Source: Oscillatoria nigro-viridis PCC 7112 (GTDB lineage Bacteria; Cyanobacteriota; Cyanobacteriia; Cyanobacteriales; Microcoleaceae). Taken from it: a stretch of DNA of 64,000 nucleotides. Under the pieces are notes generated by a model. That model worked only from the letters and a program-made list of their open reading frames with translations. It was not told the origin of the DNA and made no database searches. Positions 21,652 through 28,693 of the stretch are shown here, in pieces. The stretch covers positions 2,308,501 to 2,372,500 of the forward strand of contig NC_019729.1 of the NCBI RefSeq assembly GCF_000317475.1. Reading direction: 5' to 3'. The first letter of the stretch is position 1; each line of letters starts with the position of its first letter. Both the position numbers and the translations under genes were made by a program.

Positions 21652-21999
21652 TTAAGCTCCAATCGCTTGGCGCTGCGAGTAAATTTCTTCGATAAGCAGG
21701 TCACGCAGTTCATCCGCAATGTCCGTGGGAGGGTTGCCTGCGAGGGCGCGTCCAATCAGCCGTTCTGCTTCCCGGAGTTGGGCACACTCAATGGCAAGTA
21801 CGGCGGCGCTCCGATGCAGTATAGAACGAGTCGGCTCAAAATCCCATTCGTTTGCTACTAAATCCGCTGCCGCCCGTTCTTTCGCAAAGGCGGCTCTGGT
21901 GAGTGCAGTCACTTGGTCGATATCACCGCACTGACGGGCGAGAACTGCTCGATCGACCAGTTCCATTGCTTCGCGGTGAAGGGCTTCTACGGTCTGCAT
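21652..21999 (-). CDS. Small helical protein of unknown function, possibly 5'-disrupted by IS605
   Basis: This is a helical, TPR-like protein of about 115 residues: ELVDRAVLARQCGD, AFAKERAAADLVA, EPTRSILHRSAAVLAIEC and REAERLIGRAL. It reads as two or three helical hairpins. I start at the ATG encoding MQTVEALHREAM (21999), but the frame remains open upstream through MSHFLGQK to the IS605 boundary at about 22024. No ribosome binding site precedes 21999. Removing the two IS elements upstream appears to join this frame to the minus-strand fragment at 26172-27952, so this may be the C-terminal part of a broken gene. Alternatively it is a complete downstream gene that lost its promoter. Confidence 0.6.
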   Translation of the reverse strand: MQTVEALHREAMELVDRAVLARQCGDIDQVTALTRAAFAKERAAADLVANEWDFEPTRSILHRSAAVLAIECAQLREAERLIGRALAGNPPTDIADELRDLLIEEIYSQRQAIGA

Positions 22000-22036
22000 T
22001 TTTTGACCAAGAAAATGGGACACAAGCCCCGTCCTT

Positions 22037-22444
22037 TTAGGACGGCTTTTCTTGATTCCTAATATACTCCTTTAAGACTTCTAGAGGTGCACCACCTACG
22101 GAAACTGCGAAATAACTGGGACTCCACAAAGCTTCCTTGTGTGGTTTCTTGTGTCCGGCTTGCCCATATCGACGGCTAGACACCCCTTTTAGCGCATTCA
22201 CTATTTGAGAAACAGAAAGTTTAGGCGGATACTCAATCAGCGCATGAACGTGATTGCCTTCACCGTTAAACTCTAGAACCTGAAAATTCATTTTTTCGGC
22301 AACCTCTCGAAATGATTTTTCAATCAAGTCAAGACTTTCACTTGTAAATACAGGCCGACGATACTTTGTCACGCAGACCAAGTGGATCTTAAGTTCTGTA
22401 ACAGAATGTCGTTCTCGGCGATAGTCGGTTGTCATTTTTGGCAA
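22037..22444 (-). CDS. tnpA: IS200/IS605 transposase TnpA (Y1 HUH)
   Basis: This 135-residue single-strand transposase nicks and joins the element's hairpin ends through a 5'-phosphotyrosine link. The HUH metal motif is HVHALIEYPP, and the catalytic tyrosine is in EYIRNQ near the C-terminus. The N-terminal strand ELKIHLVCVTKYRRPVF is diagnostic. It looks intact. Translation may start at MPKM or at the second methionine. Its 3' end overlaps the left-end hairpin, as is usual. Confidence 0.93.
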   Translation of the reverse strand: MPKMTTDYRRERHSVTELKIHLVCVTKYRRPVFTSESLDLIEKSFREVAEKMNFQVLEFNGEGNHVHALIEYPPKLSVSQIVNALKGVSSRRYGQAGHKKPHKEALWSPSYFAVSVGGAPLEVLKEYIRNQEKPS

Positions 22445-22485
22445 ACCAAGATATGATTTAGTTGCAGACCAAATTTAGCACAGTT

Positions 22486-22579
22486 TTGAAATCACGATAT
22501 CGTTACAGATTCTACCCAACCGACCAACAACGACAGAGCCTAGCTCAGTTGTTTGGCTGCGTGCGTGTAGTCTGGAACG
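22486..22579 (+). CDS. tnpB: tnpB 5' exon
   Basis: The first about 31 codons of the TnpB nuclease: LKSRYRYRFYPTDQQ, then LFGCVRVVWN, the universal N-terminal segment of IS605 OrfB/TnpB. The frame has no ATG; TTG at 22486 is my choice, with another in-frame TTG at 22462. Coding stops being TnpB-like after AAC-G at 22579, where GTGCG, the consensus 5' end of group II introns, begins. Splicing to 25068 restores WND-ALALCKQSEK, a continuous TnpB sequence. Confidence 0.8.
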
Positions 22580-23190
22580 GTGCGATTCGTTTGCTAGAAA
22601 CCAAATCCAATAAGAAGGGTTTGGGGGATTAGCAGCAAGGACAAAAATAGGGAGTAATCCCGAAAATGAACCTTGACAACTGAGCGACCATGAGGGTGCA
22701 AAACCCTCCCCTGTAGATGCCAGGTGAAAGCACATCCCCTGCGGTAGCGACTAGCCCTCAATCCGTAGAGCGGGGATGAAAGCCTCTCAACACTTCCAGT
22801 TCAGGATAGTGCGGGGCAAGCAAAGAACCCATGAGTAAAACATTACGTCTGAATCCACGACTGAACCATCGTCAACTACAACCAGCAAAAAGGACTGATT
22901 AGCTGGAGCCAAAAAGGCAAAGGAAAAAAAGGTTGGCGGTTCGTTCCCCGACCAACAGCATCTCTAAATAAACCCGGTGGATAGTGGAGCTCTAAAGGTT
23001 CATAGCATGGTCGTTCGGAACGAAGTAACCCCTCGTATGTTCTCTCGGAAATCAAATACCGTGAGCAGGTGCTAACCGGATGCTGCGAGTGGGTGGGATT
23101 GAGTCAGAAGCAAACGCCTTGCTGTAATGACAAGGATATGCAGACAGACTCACGGTGATAAGGAAGGAATAGTGTAGAGTAGCAGTACAA

Positions 23191-25061
23191 ATGTCTAAAA
23201 CACTGAGCAATCAGATGGTGGAATGGAGAGAGACGGACTGGCGTAAGCTGGAACGGCGAATCTTTAAGCTGCAAAAAAGAATATTCCAAGCCTCTAGTCG
23301 TGGTGATTTGAAAGCAGTCCGCAGACTCCAGAAGACATTGATGAGGTCTTGGTCAGGAAAGATGCTAGCTGTACGTCGCGTGACGCAAGACAACCAGGGC
23401 AAGAAACAGCCGGAGTAGACGGAGTTAAATCACTCTCACCCGTCCAAAGGATAGCACTGGTGGAAAAACTTGAGCTAAAGGGGAAAACCAAACCCACTCG
23501 ACGGGTATGGATTGACAAACCAGGAACGGATGAAAAACGCCCCCTTGGTATTCCCACGATGTACGACAGAGCGCTTCAGGCGTTAGTGAAATTGATGCTT
23601 GAACCGGAGTGGGAAGCAAGGTTTGAACCCAACTCCTATGGATTCCGACCAGGACGTTCATGCCATGATGCTGTCGAGGCAATCTTTAACGCTATTAAGT
23701 CAAAGGCTAAATATGTGCTGGATGCCGACATCGCGAAATGCTTTGACCGCATAAACCACGGGGAACTTCTCAAAAAATTAAATACATTCCCGACCTTAAG
23801 ACGCCAGATAAACGCTTGGCTCAAATCGGGAGTGATGGATGGCAATCAATTATTCCCCACATCTGAGGGTACGCCACAAGGCGGGGTCATCTCTCCGCTA
23901 CTGGCAAACATTGCCCTTCACGGGATGGAAGAACGGATAAAGCAGGTGGCTGAAACATTGCCAACACCACGAGGACATAGTAAGCGAGGAAATCGCCAAT
24001 CTCTAAGCCTAATCCGGTACGCCGACGACTTCGTAATACTGCACGAGGACTTAACCGTTGTCCATAGATGTAAAGAAGTGATTTCTGAGTGGCTAAACGG
24101 CATTGGACTTGAATTGAAACCAAGTAAAACGCGCCTTGCCCATACATTGAATAAACATGATGAGCAAGACGCGGGGTTTAACTTCCTGGGGTTTAATATC
24201 AGACAGTACCCAGTAGGTAAATATAACACGGGTTGTAATCCTCATGGGGAACCACTTGGATTCAAGACGCTCATCAAACCCAGCAAGCAGAAGCTAAAGC
24301 TACACTATGACAGTATCTCTGAGGTAATAGAACAGCATAAAACAGCTCCACAAGCTGCGCTGATAACTCATTTAAATCCAATCATCAGAGGATGGGCTAA
24401 CTATTACCGCACTGTTACCAGCAAGGAAACATACTCCGAACTGGGACACAAAGTGTACAAGAAGCTAAAAAGCTGGGCACATAGACGCCACCCGAATAAA
24501 TCAGGGGAATGGATAGCCAACAAATATTGGCAAACCATAGGCGATGATAACTGGGTATTCGCAACCAGGCAAGAAAGGAAAAACCCCTTGCGGTTACAAA
24601 ATCACAACGCTACAGATATCGTGCGTCATGTGAAAGTCAAAGGCGATGCTAGTCCCTATGATGGCAACCTTGTGTACTGGAGTGCAAGAATGGGCAAAAA
24701 CCCCGAAGTCCCTAAAGATGTGGCAACACTCTTGAAACGACAGAAAGGCAAATGTACCCACTGCGGATTACACTTCACAGAAGAATCGGTGTTAGAAGTA
24801 GACCACGTTATCCCTAAGTCGAAAGGCGGAAAGGATAGCTATGACAATTTGCAACTACTCCACCGACATTGCCACGATGAAAAGACAACCAAGGATGGAA
24901 GTCTTGGCAACAAATCTGGCTGTAATCGCGCCAAGCCTTCACCCTCAAAAACGGGGAATAGAGGTACTCATGACAAGAGCCTTATTACTGAGGAGCCGGA
25001 TGAGGTGAAAGCTTCACGTCCGGTTTTGAAGACGAGCAGGGCTGGTGACAGCCTTGCTTAG
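23191..25061 (+). pseudogene. Group II intron reverse transcriptase/maturase with HNH endonuclease (frameshifted)
   Basis: Two overlapping frames encode one intron protein. Codons from ATG 23191 give the N-terminus (WRETDWRKLERRIFKLQKRI, then RRVTQDNQGKK) and run into TAG at 23416-23418. From about 23406 the other frame continues TAGVDGVKSL and holds the whole RT: GIPTMYDRALQALVK, GFRPGRSCHDA, the catalytic YADD in LIRYADDFVILH, maturase domain X, and an HNH nuclease with CTHCG, LEVDHVIPKSKGG and HRHCHDEK. Homologues read GKKTAGVDG through this joint, so one A appears to be missing from the run at 23404-23406. The protein would be made only by slippage or not at all. It runs through domain V to TAG 25059. 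Confidence 0.88.
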
Positions 25062-25066
25062 TTTAC
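24993..25066 (+). ncRNA. Group II intron domains V and VI
   Basis: Positions 24993-25026 read GAGCCGGATGAGGTGAAAG followed by its pairing half, a textbook 34-nucleotide domain V with the catalytic triad. After GAAGAC, a second hairpin (GAGCAGGGCTG / CAGCCTTGCTT) fits domain VI, with an A near its 3' side as the candidate branch point. These are the catalytic parts of the ribozyme. Confidence 0.85.
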
Positions 25067-25067
25067 C

Positions 25068-26134
25068 ATGCGCTTGCTCTGTGTAAGCAGTCCGAGAAAA
25101 AGCCGAGTTCAGTAGATTTGCAAAAAATCGTAATTACCCAGGCTAAAAATACTGAGGAAAGAGCTTGGCTAGGAGATGTGTCCTGCGTCCCATTACAGCA
25201 GTCGGTTGCCGACCTGGATGTTGCTTTTAAGAACTTCTTCAACTCCTGCAAAGGGAAAAGAAAAGGACGTAAAGTCGGATATCCTAAGTTCAAAAAACGA
25301 ACTAACAGCCAATCGGCGCGTTTTAGAGTTGGAGGGTTTTCCCTCAAAGGTGATGGAGTTTATTTAGCCAAGATTGGAATTGTTAACCCAGTCTGGTCTA
25401 GAGAATTGCCATCTGAACCTAGCTCTGTCACGGTAATCAAAGACTGTGCGAACCGCTATTTTCTAAGTTTTGTTGTAGAGGTCAAACCAATTCAATCCGA
25501 AGCTAAAAGCCCAAGTATCGGGATTGATTTGGGAATTAAAACTTTTGCAGTAATGAGTAACGGTGAAAAAGTCGAAAGCCCTAGCTATAAAAAACTAGAC
25601 CGAAAAGTTCGCAAACTACAACGCAAATTAGCCCATCAGCCCAAAGATTCTAGGAGAAGGAATGTAACTCGCATCAGAATTGCGAAACTGCATAATGGAA
25701 TTGCCGACACCCGCAAAGATTTTCTCCACAAACTGTCAACCAAAATAGTCAACGAAAACCAAGTGATTATTTTGGAAGATTTGAATGTGTCAGGAATGGT
25801 CAAGAACCGGAAACTTTCAAGAGCGATTAGTCAGCAAGGCTGGTACGAATTCCGAACGCTTTGCGAGGCTAAATCAGAGAAACTTGGTAGAGAGTTTAAG
25901 GTAATTAGTCGCTGGGAACCCACTAGCCAAGTGTGTTCGGATTGTGGATTCAAGTGGGGCAAAATTGATTTATCTATCCGCTCAGTGCTTTGTCTAAGTT
26001 GCAACACCGAGCAGGATAGAGATGAAAATGCCGCTAAGAATATAGAGAAAGTCGGGATGGGGAATCGCCACGACTCTAAATGTACGCAGAGACAGAGTAA
26101 GACAACTTCGGTTGCATCAGTCGGTGAAGCGTAA
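25068..26134 (+). CDS. tnpB: tnpB 3' exon: RNA-guided nuclease TnpB (IS605 OrfB)
   Basis: This is the main body of TnpB, which in characterised members is an RNA-guided, TAM-dependent DNA endonuclease that helps the element persist. All three RuvC acidic positions are visible: GIDLGIKTFAV, ILEDLNVSGM and DRDENAAKN. The zinc ribbon is complete, with CSDCG and CLSCN. Just before the first clear TnpB motif here, ALALCKQSEK continues the 5' exon. A TTG at 25118 could allow an N-terminally truncated product without splicing. The gene ends at TAA 26132-26134, close to the right-end hairpin. Confidence 0.9.
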
Positions 26135-26170
26135 AGAATCCCCGTGCGTTTACGCCGGGGAGTATTTCAA
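26020..26170 (+). ncRNA. Predicted omega (reRNA) guide RNA region at the IS605 right end
   Basis: Characterised TnpB proteins use a guide RNA that overlaps the 3' end of tnpB and the right end, with the guide taken from flanking DNA. By analogy, this segment, containing the CCCCGTGCGTTTACGCCGGGG hairpin, would be the scaffold and the guide would begin just beyond about 26170. This is inferred from position only. Confidence 0.35.
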
Positions 26171-26211
26171 GATCCGTGCTTTGGGAGTACCGAACTCAAT
26201 TACAGATACAT

Positions 26212-27881
26212 AGGGCTTGCTGAATCAGTGAGAAAAGTAAACAGTGTATGGGTTTTCCGAACAAAAAAGTAGTAAGGGTCGCCGTGAAAAACAGGTATAA
26301 TCAGTCAAAACCCGTGCATCACCACCTGCGATCGTGTATAGAAAAGCTGAGCTTGCCCCAAGCTCCCCATCCGACTTTGAACTCCCCTTTGAAGGAAGAT
26401 TGTCAGAAGATAACCGTTGGGTAAAAATGACCCAACTAATTCCTTGGTTAGAATTTGAATCAGAATATGCTGCAAATTTTCCGACCGAAATGGGAGCACC
26501 CGCTTGCATCATTTAGGATGGCATTAGGGGCATTAATTATCAAAGAAAAGCTGGGAATCAGCGACATAGAAACAGTAGAACAGATCCGAGAAAACCCATA
26601 CCTGCAATACTTTATAGGTCAATCAACATACAGTAATGAACCCCCATTTGATCCATCATTATTAGTCCACTTTCGGCAGCGAATCAGTGCAAACTTAATC
26701 AAGAAAGTGAACGAACGGATGGTGGAAAAAATGCGCGAAACCACCCCAAAACCGCCCGAAAAAAAAAAGGATTCGGACGCAAAAAATGAATTAACCAATC
26801 AAGGAAAATTAGTCATAGATGCGACCTGTGCTCCAGCAGATATTAGCTATCCCACCGACTTAGGGCTATTAAACCGAGCCAGAGTTCATACCGAAAAAAT
26901 CATCGATATTCTCTATAAATCCCTCAAAGTAAAAATCAATAAAAAACCCAGAACCTACCGGAAAATAGCCAGGAAAGACTACTTAGCAGTAGCAAAACAA
27001 CGACGACCTAAACGAAACAAAAAAATCCAAGCCCTTAAAAAACAACTGCAATATATCAAAAGAAACCTCGCTAATATTGAACAGCTAATCGAATCAGGTG
27101 CCACCCTACAAAGTTTGACCAAAAAGCAATATAAAACCTTGCTAGTTCTCACAGAAGTCTATCGCCAACAACTCTGGTTATTGGAAAATAAAAAACAGAG
27201 TATATCGGACAGTTGGGGTAAGTTTAAGCCAACCGCACATCCGTCCCATTGTTAGAGGAAAAGCAGGAAAACCCGTAGAGTTTGGAGCTAAACTGTCAGC
27301 GAGTTGCAGTGAAGGATATGTATTTTTAGACCGGATAAGTTGGGATAACTTTAACGAATCAGGAGACTTAAAAGCACTCATTTGAAGCATTTAAAATTTA
27401 CACAGGATGCTATCCAGAATCAGTCCATGCCGATCGCATTTATCGAACCAGGGAAAATCGAGCCTGGTGTAAAGAAAGAGGAATTAGAATTAGTGGCCCC
27501 CCTTTAGGAAGGCCACCAGCAATTGTTAGTAAGGAAACCAAGAAACAAGCCTGGGAAGATGAAAGAATTCGTAACTCTATTGAGGGCAAATTTGGACAAG
27601 GTAAAAGAAGATTTAGCTTGAATCGAGTGATGGCAAAGCTTGATAATACTTCGGAAACAGCTATTGCTATTACTTTTTTAGTGATGAACCTTGCTACCTG
27701 GTTAAGACGGGTTTTTTGTGTGTTTTTATGTCAAAAACCAAAAATCACACCTATTTATGGTTCAATGATTATTAAAAGCTATAACTGGGCAAGTTATAGT
27801 CAACAAAAAGTTATGTTTTGCCGAGCTTGAATTGCCCATTAATTGCGATCGCGATTTTTCCTAACTTATTCAGTAAGCCCT
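26212..27881 (+). mobile_element. IS5-like insertion sequence with 4-bp target duplication
   Basis: A 1670-bp element has imperfect terminal inverted repeats: AGGGCTTGCTGAATCAGT at 26212 and AGGGCTTACTGAATAAGT as the complement ending at 27881. ACAT flanks it on both sides (26208-26211 and 27882-27885), a direct target duplication. It contains one decayed DDE transposase gene. Confidence 0.88.
26334..27830 (+). pseudogene. IS5-family DDE transposase, multiply frameshifted
   Basis: Fragments in three frames together spell a full IS5/IS1182-like transposase. The N-terminus is LAPSSPSDFELPFEGRL, then SFRMALGALIIKEKLGISD and LLVHFRQRI (DUF772 region). LVIDATCAPADISYPTD gives the first catalytic Asp, SVHADRIYRTRENR the second, and NSIEGKFGQGKRRFSLNRV the catalytic Glu. 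Frame breaks occur at about 26508 (an extra T), about 27206-27216, and about 27381. The element cannot move by its own transposase in this state, though it could be mobilised in trans. Confidence 0.87.
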
Positions 27882-27980
27882 ACATAGCCAGGAGCTACGT
27901 CATCTGAAGGGCGGATTTGTTCTAATTTTATGTTAACTCTGGCTTGAATCATGCTGTCAGAACCTTTACCGAGCCACTCT

Positions 27981-28397
27981 TCACCAAAACCGATTCGGCA
28001 AATCCGCCAAAATGAGTTTGAGTTCCGGTTCATTAACCCGCTTAATTGATTTAGGAATACTTACCCACTGGCGCTTTCTCTTGCTAGCTTCCGGCCAAAT
28101 TTCCAGAACTGCTTCCACTTGCAGTAGAAATACTCCTACCAGCCAAGTACAGCCGGATTTTTGATACTCGTAAGTTCCTAGCAAATCCGGGAACACTTTA
28201 CCCAACAAACCTGCTTCTTCCCAAGCTTCCTTGGCGGCGGAATCTTGGGGAGTCATGTCAGGTTCAATTAATCCTTTGGGAATAACCCAGCGCTTGCTAG
28301 CCGAAGAAGTAATCAGCATTACTTCAATTTGTCCGTCTTGAATGCGATAGGGAATTACCCCCGATTGCTCTATCAATACAGCGCTTCTTATACTCAT
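27981..28397 (-). CDS. Nudix hydrolase
   Basis: This protein of about 138 residues hydrolyses nucleoside-diphosphate-linked substrates, possibly diadenosine polyphosphates or inositol pyrophosphates judging from the motif variety. The Nudix box region reads PKGLIEPDMTPQDSAAKEAW followed by EEAGL. The metal-binding EExxG is intact, while the canonical Arg is Lys, and the first Glu is four residues into the box. I start at ATG 28397 (MSIRSAVLIEQSGVIPYR); a TTG at 28454 would add 19 residues with no homologue-like content. It is followed after 29 bp by the IS-interrupted gene. Confidence 0.88.
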   Translation of the reverse strand: MSIRSAVLIEQSGVIPYRIQDGQIEVMLITSSASKRWVIPKGLIEPDMTPQDSAAKEAWEEAGLLGKVFPDLLGTYEYQKSGCTWLVGVFLLQVEAVLEIWPEASKRKRQWVSIPKSIKRVNEPELKLILADLPNRFW

Positions 28398-28693
28398 GAT
28401 TTCTGCAATATTTCTGGGTGACAAAGCTACTGCAACTTCATCAACAGTTGACAACTAAAAAATAAAAATTGCATCCAGATTCTAGATAATTCCCCAGTGG
28501 AGACAACAAAGTGGAGAATAAAGATATTTGGTTTTTACCCTCTGTGCAAAATAGGAAATTCCCCTGCACTCCCACTGCACTCCCACTGAACAATAATATT
28601 ATTATAATAACTGCGCGAAATCCTCTACCGACAAGCAGATAAAAGCCGATCGCCAATATCTGCCTTGATCTGCGCCGGTATGGGGTGTTACAC

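What the first reader, a model, noticed from the sequence alone, without database searches (positions are those of the whole stretch)
22024..27952. Nested insertions: host gene, IS605, group II intron and frameshift, with a second IS alongside
A small minus-strand gene behind the Nudix gene is interrupted by an IS5-like element with an ACAT duplication. Immediately beyond lies an IS605 element whose tnpB is split by a group II intron that itself contains a frameshifted reverse transcriptase. Removing the IS5-like element restores an open frame. Removing IS605 as well, with the boundaries I assumed, joins that frame in phase to the helical protein at 21652. This gives a stepwise record of insertions.
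Basis: partly seen in the sequence, partly recalled or inferred. Interest (0 to 1): 0.75.

Follow-up and report, generated by a model that had tools for sequence, protein, structure and literature searches.

The report
Group II intron inside an IS605
In a filamentous cyanobacterium a decaying gene has lost its front end and been hit by two jumping elements, one of which carries a self-splicing intron inside its own gene; the pile-up is ordinary, but related introns in neighbouring genomes also tend to sit in that same jumping-element gene.

Summary
The insertions are real; empty sites in relatives fix the anatomy and change the story. An IS605 element (22008-26170) carries a 2,488-nt group II intron (22580-25067) in tnpB; leaving the intron out restores the TnpB frame, as intron-free homologues predict. 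The intron's reverse transcriptase lacks one base compared with three other copies in this genome. An IS5-type element (26213-27880) lies beside it with a 6-bp duplication, not ACAT. The host gene is not one ORF joined in phase to the helical protein: relatives show a 194-codon gene A whose stop overlaps the start of gene B in another frame. The IS605 with its intron sits elsewhere in the genome, identical but for that base, so it moves as a unit; the same intron sits at the same site in two diverged tnpBs, so it also moves between them. In a census of introns sharing its 5' end, 24 of 103 junctions abut tnpB in sense, none antisense; the other 79 do not. Nested insertion is a known kind; this pairing is the interesting part.

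The parts
21652..21999 (-). gene B, 115-aa helical (TPR-like) protein, intact; ATG at 21999-21997
   Evidence: homologues in 13 of 59 genomes searched, own included; alignment A2; model of 5 helices, mean pLDDT 93.7; start set by relatives
22008..26170 (+). IS605-group element, 4163 bp with its intron; inserted after TTTTTTGAC (21999-22007), no target duplication
   Evidence: empty site in relatives; second copy L003 identical but for one base, different flanks
22037..22444 (-). tnpA, Y1 (HUH) transposase, 135 aa, open
   Evidence: PF01797 E=1e-37; NF033573 over its cut-off
22486..22579 (+). tnpB exon 1 (TTG start likely; ends in VVWN, phase 1)
   Evidence: intron-free homologues L091 and L092 align across the junction
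22580..25067 (+). group II intron, 2488 nt, begins GTGCG, ends ACC
   Evidence: RF00029 at 24991-25066 and RF04357 at 24990-25030; 4 full-length copies in own genome, all at the same tnpB site
22749..22753 (+). candidate EBS2 (GACTA), complements TAGTC in exon 1
   Evidence: a 5-mer match can easily be chance
22942..22947 (+). candidate EBS1 (CGTTCC), complements the last 6 nt of exon 1
   Evidence: one such 6-mer in the 700 nt scanned is expected by chance with probability about 0.17
23191..25061 (+). intron-encoded protein (RVT_N, RVT_1, GIIM, HNH), broken by a one-base deletion near 23407
   Evidence: the other three copies have one open frame of 629 codons
24990..25066 (+). intron domains V and VI
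25068..26134 (+). tnpB exon 2
   Evidence: PF01385, PF07282; NF040570 over its cut-off
26171..26212 (-). remnant of host gene A, codons ~175-188
   Evidence: aligns to L050 and L051
26207..26212 (+). 6-bp target duplication TACATA, left copy
26213..27880 (+). IS5-type element, 1668 bp; transposase frame broken in several places
   Evidence: 10 copies ~100% identical in own genome, this one included; ends; frames
27881..27886 (+). 6-bp target duplication TACATA, right copy
27887..27969 (-). remnant of host gene A, codons ~147-174
   Evidence: 27881-27969 is 98.9% identical to L050 8280-8368
27966..27969 (.). deletion junction: ~552 bp between the Nudix gene and codon ~147 of gene A missing; GTAA shared at both ends
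27981..28454 (-). Nudix gene, intact flank
   Evidence: PF00293; syntenic in L050

Best explanation
Gene A (194 codons, overlapping gene B) lost its 5' three quarters through a ~552-bp deletion and was disrupted by two insertions: an IS5-type element near codon 174 (6-bp duplication) and an IS605 element after codon 188, eight bases before gene B's ATG. The IS605 carries a group II intron in tnpB. Shown here: boundaries, empty sites, exact restoration of the TnpB frame when the intron is left out, a second IS605::intron copy elsewhere identical but for one base, and the same intron at the same position in two diverged tnpBs. Inferred: (i) the intron splices from tnpB mRNA so that TnpB can still be made; (ii) it spreads between tnpB genes by retrohoming to a conserved N-terminal coding site; (iii) it is also carried as a passenger when TnpA moves the whole element, and probably arrived here that way; (iv) the window copy depends on other copies for a working maturase; (v) gene B stays intact but is cut off from its upstream partner.
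For: Synteny and empty sites in a ~94%-identical relative; 8 of 12 loci checked hold the IS605 empty-site string. Intron-free tnpB homologues align straight across the junction. Window and L003 share 4168 aligned bases at 99.976% with different flanks. The intron in L002 and L004 differs from the window's only by the missing base, while their tnpB exon 2 is 67.0% and 76.7% identical to the window's. L002's 94-nt 5' exon is 91.5% identical but its first 200 nt of 3' exon only 60.2%, as 5'-exon co-conversion would give. In a census of 103 distinct junctions, 24 abut tnpB homology in sense and 0 antisense, against roughly 0.8 in sense expected if tnpB fills ~1.5% of a genome (my estimate).
Against: No RNA data: splicing is inferred. 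The intron ends in ACC rather than the usual AY (AY recalled). EBS/IBS matches are short. The L002 co-conversion signal is partly explained by better conservation of the N-terminal codons (L002 vs L091: 80.9%, then 63.9%). The missing base could be a read or assembly error. 79 of 103 census junctions, 7 of the 9 copies of another intron family in this genome, and the 4 examined G055 relatives of the window intron are not in tnpB as far as the search shows.
Confidence: 0.88

Rival explanations
1. One reading: one gene of about 150-160 codons, from 27952 to the end of the helical protein, split by the two IS elements.
For: The frame is open across the IS5-type site, and gene B lies directly behind the IS605 site.
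Against: In 8 of 8 loci with the empty-site string, A stops 10-13 nt inside B in another frame. Of 40 loci from the protein search, 33 gave both an A stop and a B start: 32 overlap out of phase, 1 has the stop 47 nt upstream, none is fused in phase; 3 gave no A frame and 4 no B.
Confidence: 0.02
2. The intron was inherited with the tnpB lineage and never homed: diverged tnpBs share it by descent.
For: All four full-length copies sit at the identical position.
Against: The intron shows no substitutions between copies whose exon 2 differs by 23-33%, and the intron-free elements L089-L092 are closer to the window element than L004's element is (80% vs 77%).
Confidence: 0.04
3. Gene conversion or recombination between IS605 copies, not retrohoming, moved the intron.
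For: Long identical stretch plus a similar 5' exon in L002.
Against: Identity drops sharply at the 3' intron boundary in L002 (60.2%) and on both sides in L004 (72.3% and 73.5%); recombination would usually bring flanks along.
Confidence: 0.12
4. The one-base deletion in the IEP is a sequencing or assembly error.
For: It lies in a short A run that is longer in the three other copies.
Against: None available from sequence alone.
Confidence: 0.3

Closest known systems
IS200/IS605 family, IS605 group
   Same: Y1 TnpA and TnpB divergent, no target duplication, fixed left target (TGAC)
   Different: carries a 2.5-kb group II intron inside tnpB
IStrons (group I intron plus IS; PMC4227781: start of abstract and found passages seen)
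   Same: a self-splicing intron joined to an IS605-type element and travelling with it
   Different: here the intron is group II, encodes its own RT, and sits inside tnpB; splicing would not remove the whole element from host RNA
Group II introns nested in other mobile elements (PMC8919778, passages seen)
   Same: that paper's introduction states that group II introns often nest within other mobile elements, including other group II introns
   Different: the passages seen do not mention tnpB
Thermosynechococcus TeI group II introns (PMC2882425, 12 of 34 found passages seen)
   Same: many copies in a cyanobacterium, twintrons, IEPs that mobilise other copies
   Different: the passages seen say only a few lie within genes, and do not mention tnpB
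IS5 family
   Same: best NCBIfam match of the transposase fragment
   Different: score below the curated cut-off on a broken frame; 6-bp duplications

Membership tests
IS200/IS605 (IS605 group) | Y1 HUH transposase TnpA | tested here: met
   PF01797 E=1e-37, NF033573 over cut-off
IS200/IS605 (IS605 group) | TnpB, divergent from tnpA | tested here: met
IS200/IS605 (IS605 group) | insertion without target duplication, fixed motif at the left end | tested here: met
   empty site TTTTTTGAC|GATCC; window, L003 and L004 elements all follow TGAC
IS200/IS605 (IS605 group) | single-strand transposition by TnpA | not testable with these tools
   needs an assay
group II intron | domain V/VI above the Rfam threshold and GUGYG 5' end | tested here: met
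   5' end GTGCG
group II intron | IEP with RT, maturase and endonuclease domains | tested here: met
   RVT_N, RVT_1, GIIM, HNH in the two pieces; this copy is frameshifted
group II intron | exact removal restores the host frame | tested here: met
   TnpB frame continuous; intron-free homologues match the junction
group II intron | EBS/IBS pairing | tested here: inconclusive
   6-nt and 5-nt candidates only
group II intron | splicing | not testable with these tools
   needs RNA
IStron | group I intron core | tested here: not met
   Rfam scan of the whole window at gathering thresholds: 2 hits, both group II
IStron | whole element spliced out of host RNA | tested here: not met
   intron ends lie inside tnpB, so IS605 sequence would remain
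IS5 | IS5 transposase above curated cut-off | tested here: inconclusive
   NF033578 211.3 bits, cut-off 275, on a fragment

The most novel reading that the evidence does not exclude
tnpB is a shared home for several group II intron sub-families in these cyanobacteria, with preferred conserved coding motifs (VVWN near the N-terminus; the RuvC-III-like DxNxAAxN motif; QDR|D), and one sub-family has settled in an IS605 right end. IS605-group II composites would then be a second, independently evolved kind of intron-transposon partnership, in which splicing decides whether TnpB, or a guide RNA interrupted by the intron, is made.
Probability: 0.35. Interest if true: 0.65.

Novelty: new variant of a known kind. 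Interest (0 to 1): 0.42.

Why it matters
Group I introns paired with IS605-type elements are known as IStrons. A repeated, sense-only association of retrohoming group II introns with tnpB would show that RNA-guided nuclease genes are a common refuge for self-splicing retroelements, and it can be tested directly. The host-gene part is routine gene decay, but with clean empty sites.

Tried and rejected
Single fused ORF: rejected by empty sites. ACAT 4-bp duplication: replaced by 6-bp TACATA. Function of genes A and B: no Pfam, NCBIfam or PADLOC match, no PDB sequence match for A, no Foldseek match with E<=0.001 for either model; B looks TPR-like only. Ordering the two IS insertions and the deletion: no sequence evidence. 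EBS/IBS pairing in the G055 introns: none convincing by eye. Literature: searches (15 of 18 hits listed) listed no paper whose title or shown abstract start reports group II introns in tnpB; of these papers only found passages of six were seen, none in whole. A 2024 paper on conflict between IS605 introns and guide RNAs is recalled, not seen. Recalled, from no call: AY 3' ends, usual EBS/IBS positions, the names 'aminopeptidase', pdxJ and rarA, and the RuvC-III label for the DxN motif.

Full report
Setting. The window is G000:C1:2308501-2372500 of an unnamed 8.27-Mb genome in 6 contigs.

Host locus. The window keeps this order, but BLAST jumps from L050 7731 to 8280 at window 27966-27969: about 552 bp, including the first ~146 codons of A, are gone, with GTAA at both ends of the deletion. 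What is left of A is split by two insertions. Of 59 genomes searched (own plus 58 relatives), 15 have a match to A; in G001, G010, G024 and G048 a match is only a fragment or is interrupted, so the gene looks dispensable in this group.

Two genes, not one. The empty-site string was found in 8 of 12 gene-B loci checked; the other 4 are L036, L039, L044 and L049, of which L036's genome still aligns almost contiguously across the site (L056). In all 8, A ends 10-13 nt inside B in another frame; in 4 of them (L034, L038, L047, L048) A is itself damaged further upstream. Functions are unknown: no family match. The fold of A, modelled on a relative's sequence, is confident (mean pLDDT 86.6) but has no significant PDB match; B is helical, with TPR proteins as the best, non-significant matches.

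IS605. The element runs from 22008 to 26170. The left host sequence TTTTTTGAC and the right GATCCG are contiguous in relatives, so there is no duplication. The window, L003 and L004 elements all follow TGAC and end in TTTCAA. TnpA is open; TnpB is open once the intron is left out.

Intron. It runs from 22580 to 25067. Intron-free tnpB homologues of about 80% identity exist in the same genome (L089-L092); each aligns in one piece over the junction, shown base by base for L091 and L092. There are four full-length copies in this genome, all at the same tnpB codon, besides more diverged introns. The three others are 2,489 nt and differ from the window copy by one base only; their IEP is one open frame of 629 codons. 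L003 is a second copy of the whole IS605 plus intron, with different flanks. L004 and L002 are different tnpBs (exon 2 76.7% and 67.0% identical) with the same intron. So the intron has moved both with the IS and between tnpBs. L002's pattern, 91.5% in the 94-nt 5' exon but 60.2% in the first 200 nt of the 3' exon, suggests 5'-exon co-conversion, though better N-terminal conservation explains part of it.

IS5-type element. It runs from 26213 to 27880 with 6-bp TACATA duplications. Ten copies, this one included, are ~100% identical. The 7 of these 10 whose frames were read all have a broken transposase, and the 9 other copies have 6-bp flanking repeats, so the family probably moves in trans.

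Wider pattern. The 5'-end pattern GTGCGATTCGTTNNNNNGAAA had 104 matches in 31 of 59 genomes (own plus 58 relatives), and none for the reversed control pattern. Introns with other 5' ends are not counted. The 104 give 103 distinct junctions; upstream sequence was 1,200 nt for most but as short as 115 nt for some near contig ends. With 36 TnpB query sequences, tnpB homology reaches within 12 nt of the junction in sense at 24 of 103 and antisense at 0 of 103. Two of the 24 are soft: S016 (36% identity over 99 aa) and S007, where the intron lies behind tnpB in what looks like the right end. The own genome has about 100 tnpB loci (107 matches, 5 below cut-off, some split), roughly 1.5% of its length; using that for all genomes is an approximation, and introns of one lineage are not independent. 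The 24 carry 11 of the 21 five-base tags seen, but a tag is no proof of a separate lineage. Of the 21 junctions with tag CAGTCGAAA, 11 are in tnpB; read by eye, 10 of these 11 follow a DxNxAAxN-type motif and S042 a variant. Five 5' exons, four of them with that tag, were confirmed as OrfB_IS605 by Pfam. Against an absolute preference: the other 10 CAGTCGAAA junctions show no tnpB, among them 7 of the 9 copies of that intron in the own genome; and G055 carries 80-82% relatives of the window intron, the 4 examined showing no tnpB and two lying in other genes.

Verdict. Nested insertion is a known kind; a group II intron riding in tnpB is a pairing that the listed searches did not turn up in print, and the sense-only tnpB bias deserves a proper census.

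Noticed in passing
L149 4836-7153 (G055), L153 4651-7058 (G021): Twintrons: a second RT- and HNH-like group II intron (read from its frames) lies inside the IEP gene of relatives of the window intron, at nearly the same place.
   Followed up: partly
junctions S005 (L155), S053 (L276), S055 (L277), S068 (L291), possibly S057 (L280): The 5 introns with tag GGGTAGAAA have 5' exons that resemble an RT gene at a GFRPG-like motif (S057 less clearly); read by eye.
   Followed up: partly
27 junctions with tags TAGCCGAAA, TAGTCGAAA, TAGCTGAAA or TAACCGAAA, e.g. L268-L271: TATAAT/TACAAT starts exactly 18 nt upstream of the junction in 10 of 27 (1 each at -17 and -19; 3 elsewhere in 200 nt), like a promoter -10 box; it may simply be an IEP recognition motif.
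   Followed up: partly
8 junctions with tag AGGTCGAAA in G032 (L257-L264): Several share a motif like AAGTAGGYAGG just upstream of the junction (by eye).
   Followed up: no
L150, L151 (G055): Relatives of the window intron interrupt what look like pdxJ and rarA host genes (names recalled from the translations, no family search), with frames that seem to continue across.
   Followed up: partly
L158, L159 (G018): Two introns sit in sequences resembling the IS605 right-end hairpin, possibly part of the guide RNA; tnpB directly upstream was found only for L159.
   Followed up: partly
window 26213-27880 and L061-L069: A recently multiplied IS5-type element whose transposase frame is broken in all 7 of 10 near-identical copies whose frames were read.
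   Followed up: partly
window 21652-21999 and 27887-27969; L168-L207: Conserved two-gene pair (about 190 aa and 115-130 aa, mostly overlapping by 4 or 13 nt) of unknown function, mainly in cyanobacteria with a few records labelled as other phyla.
   Followed up: partly
L038/L055/L142 (G001): Gene A is truncated within a few bases of the window's deletion point, with different upstream sequence; a shared fragile point or chance.
   Followed up: no
L052 (G024): A ~450-bp insertion in the same gene A carries a sequence like the IS605 left-end hairpin, so this gene has been hit more than once in the genus.
   Followed up: no
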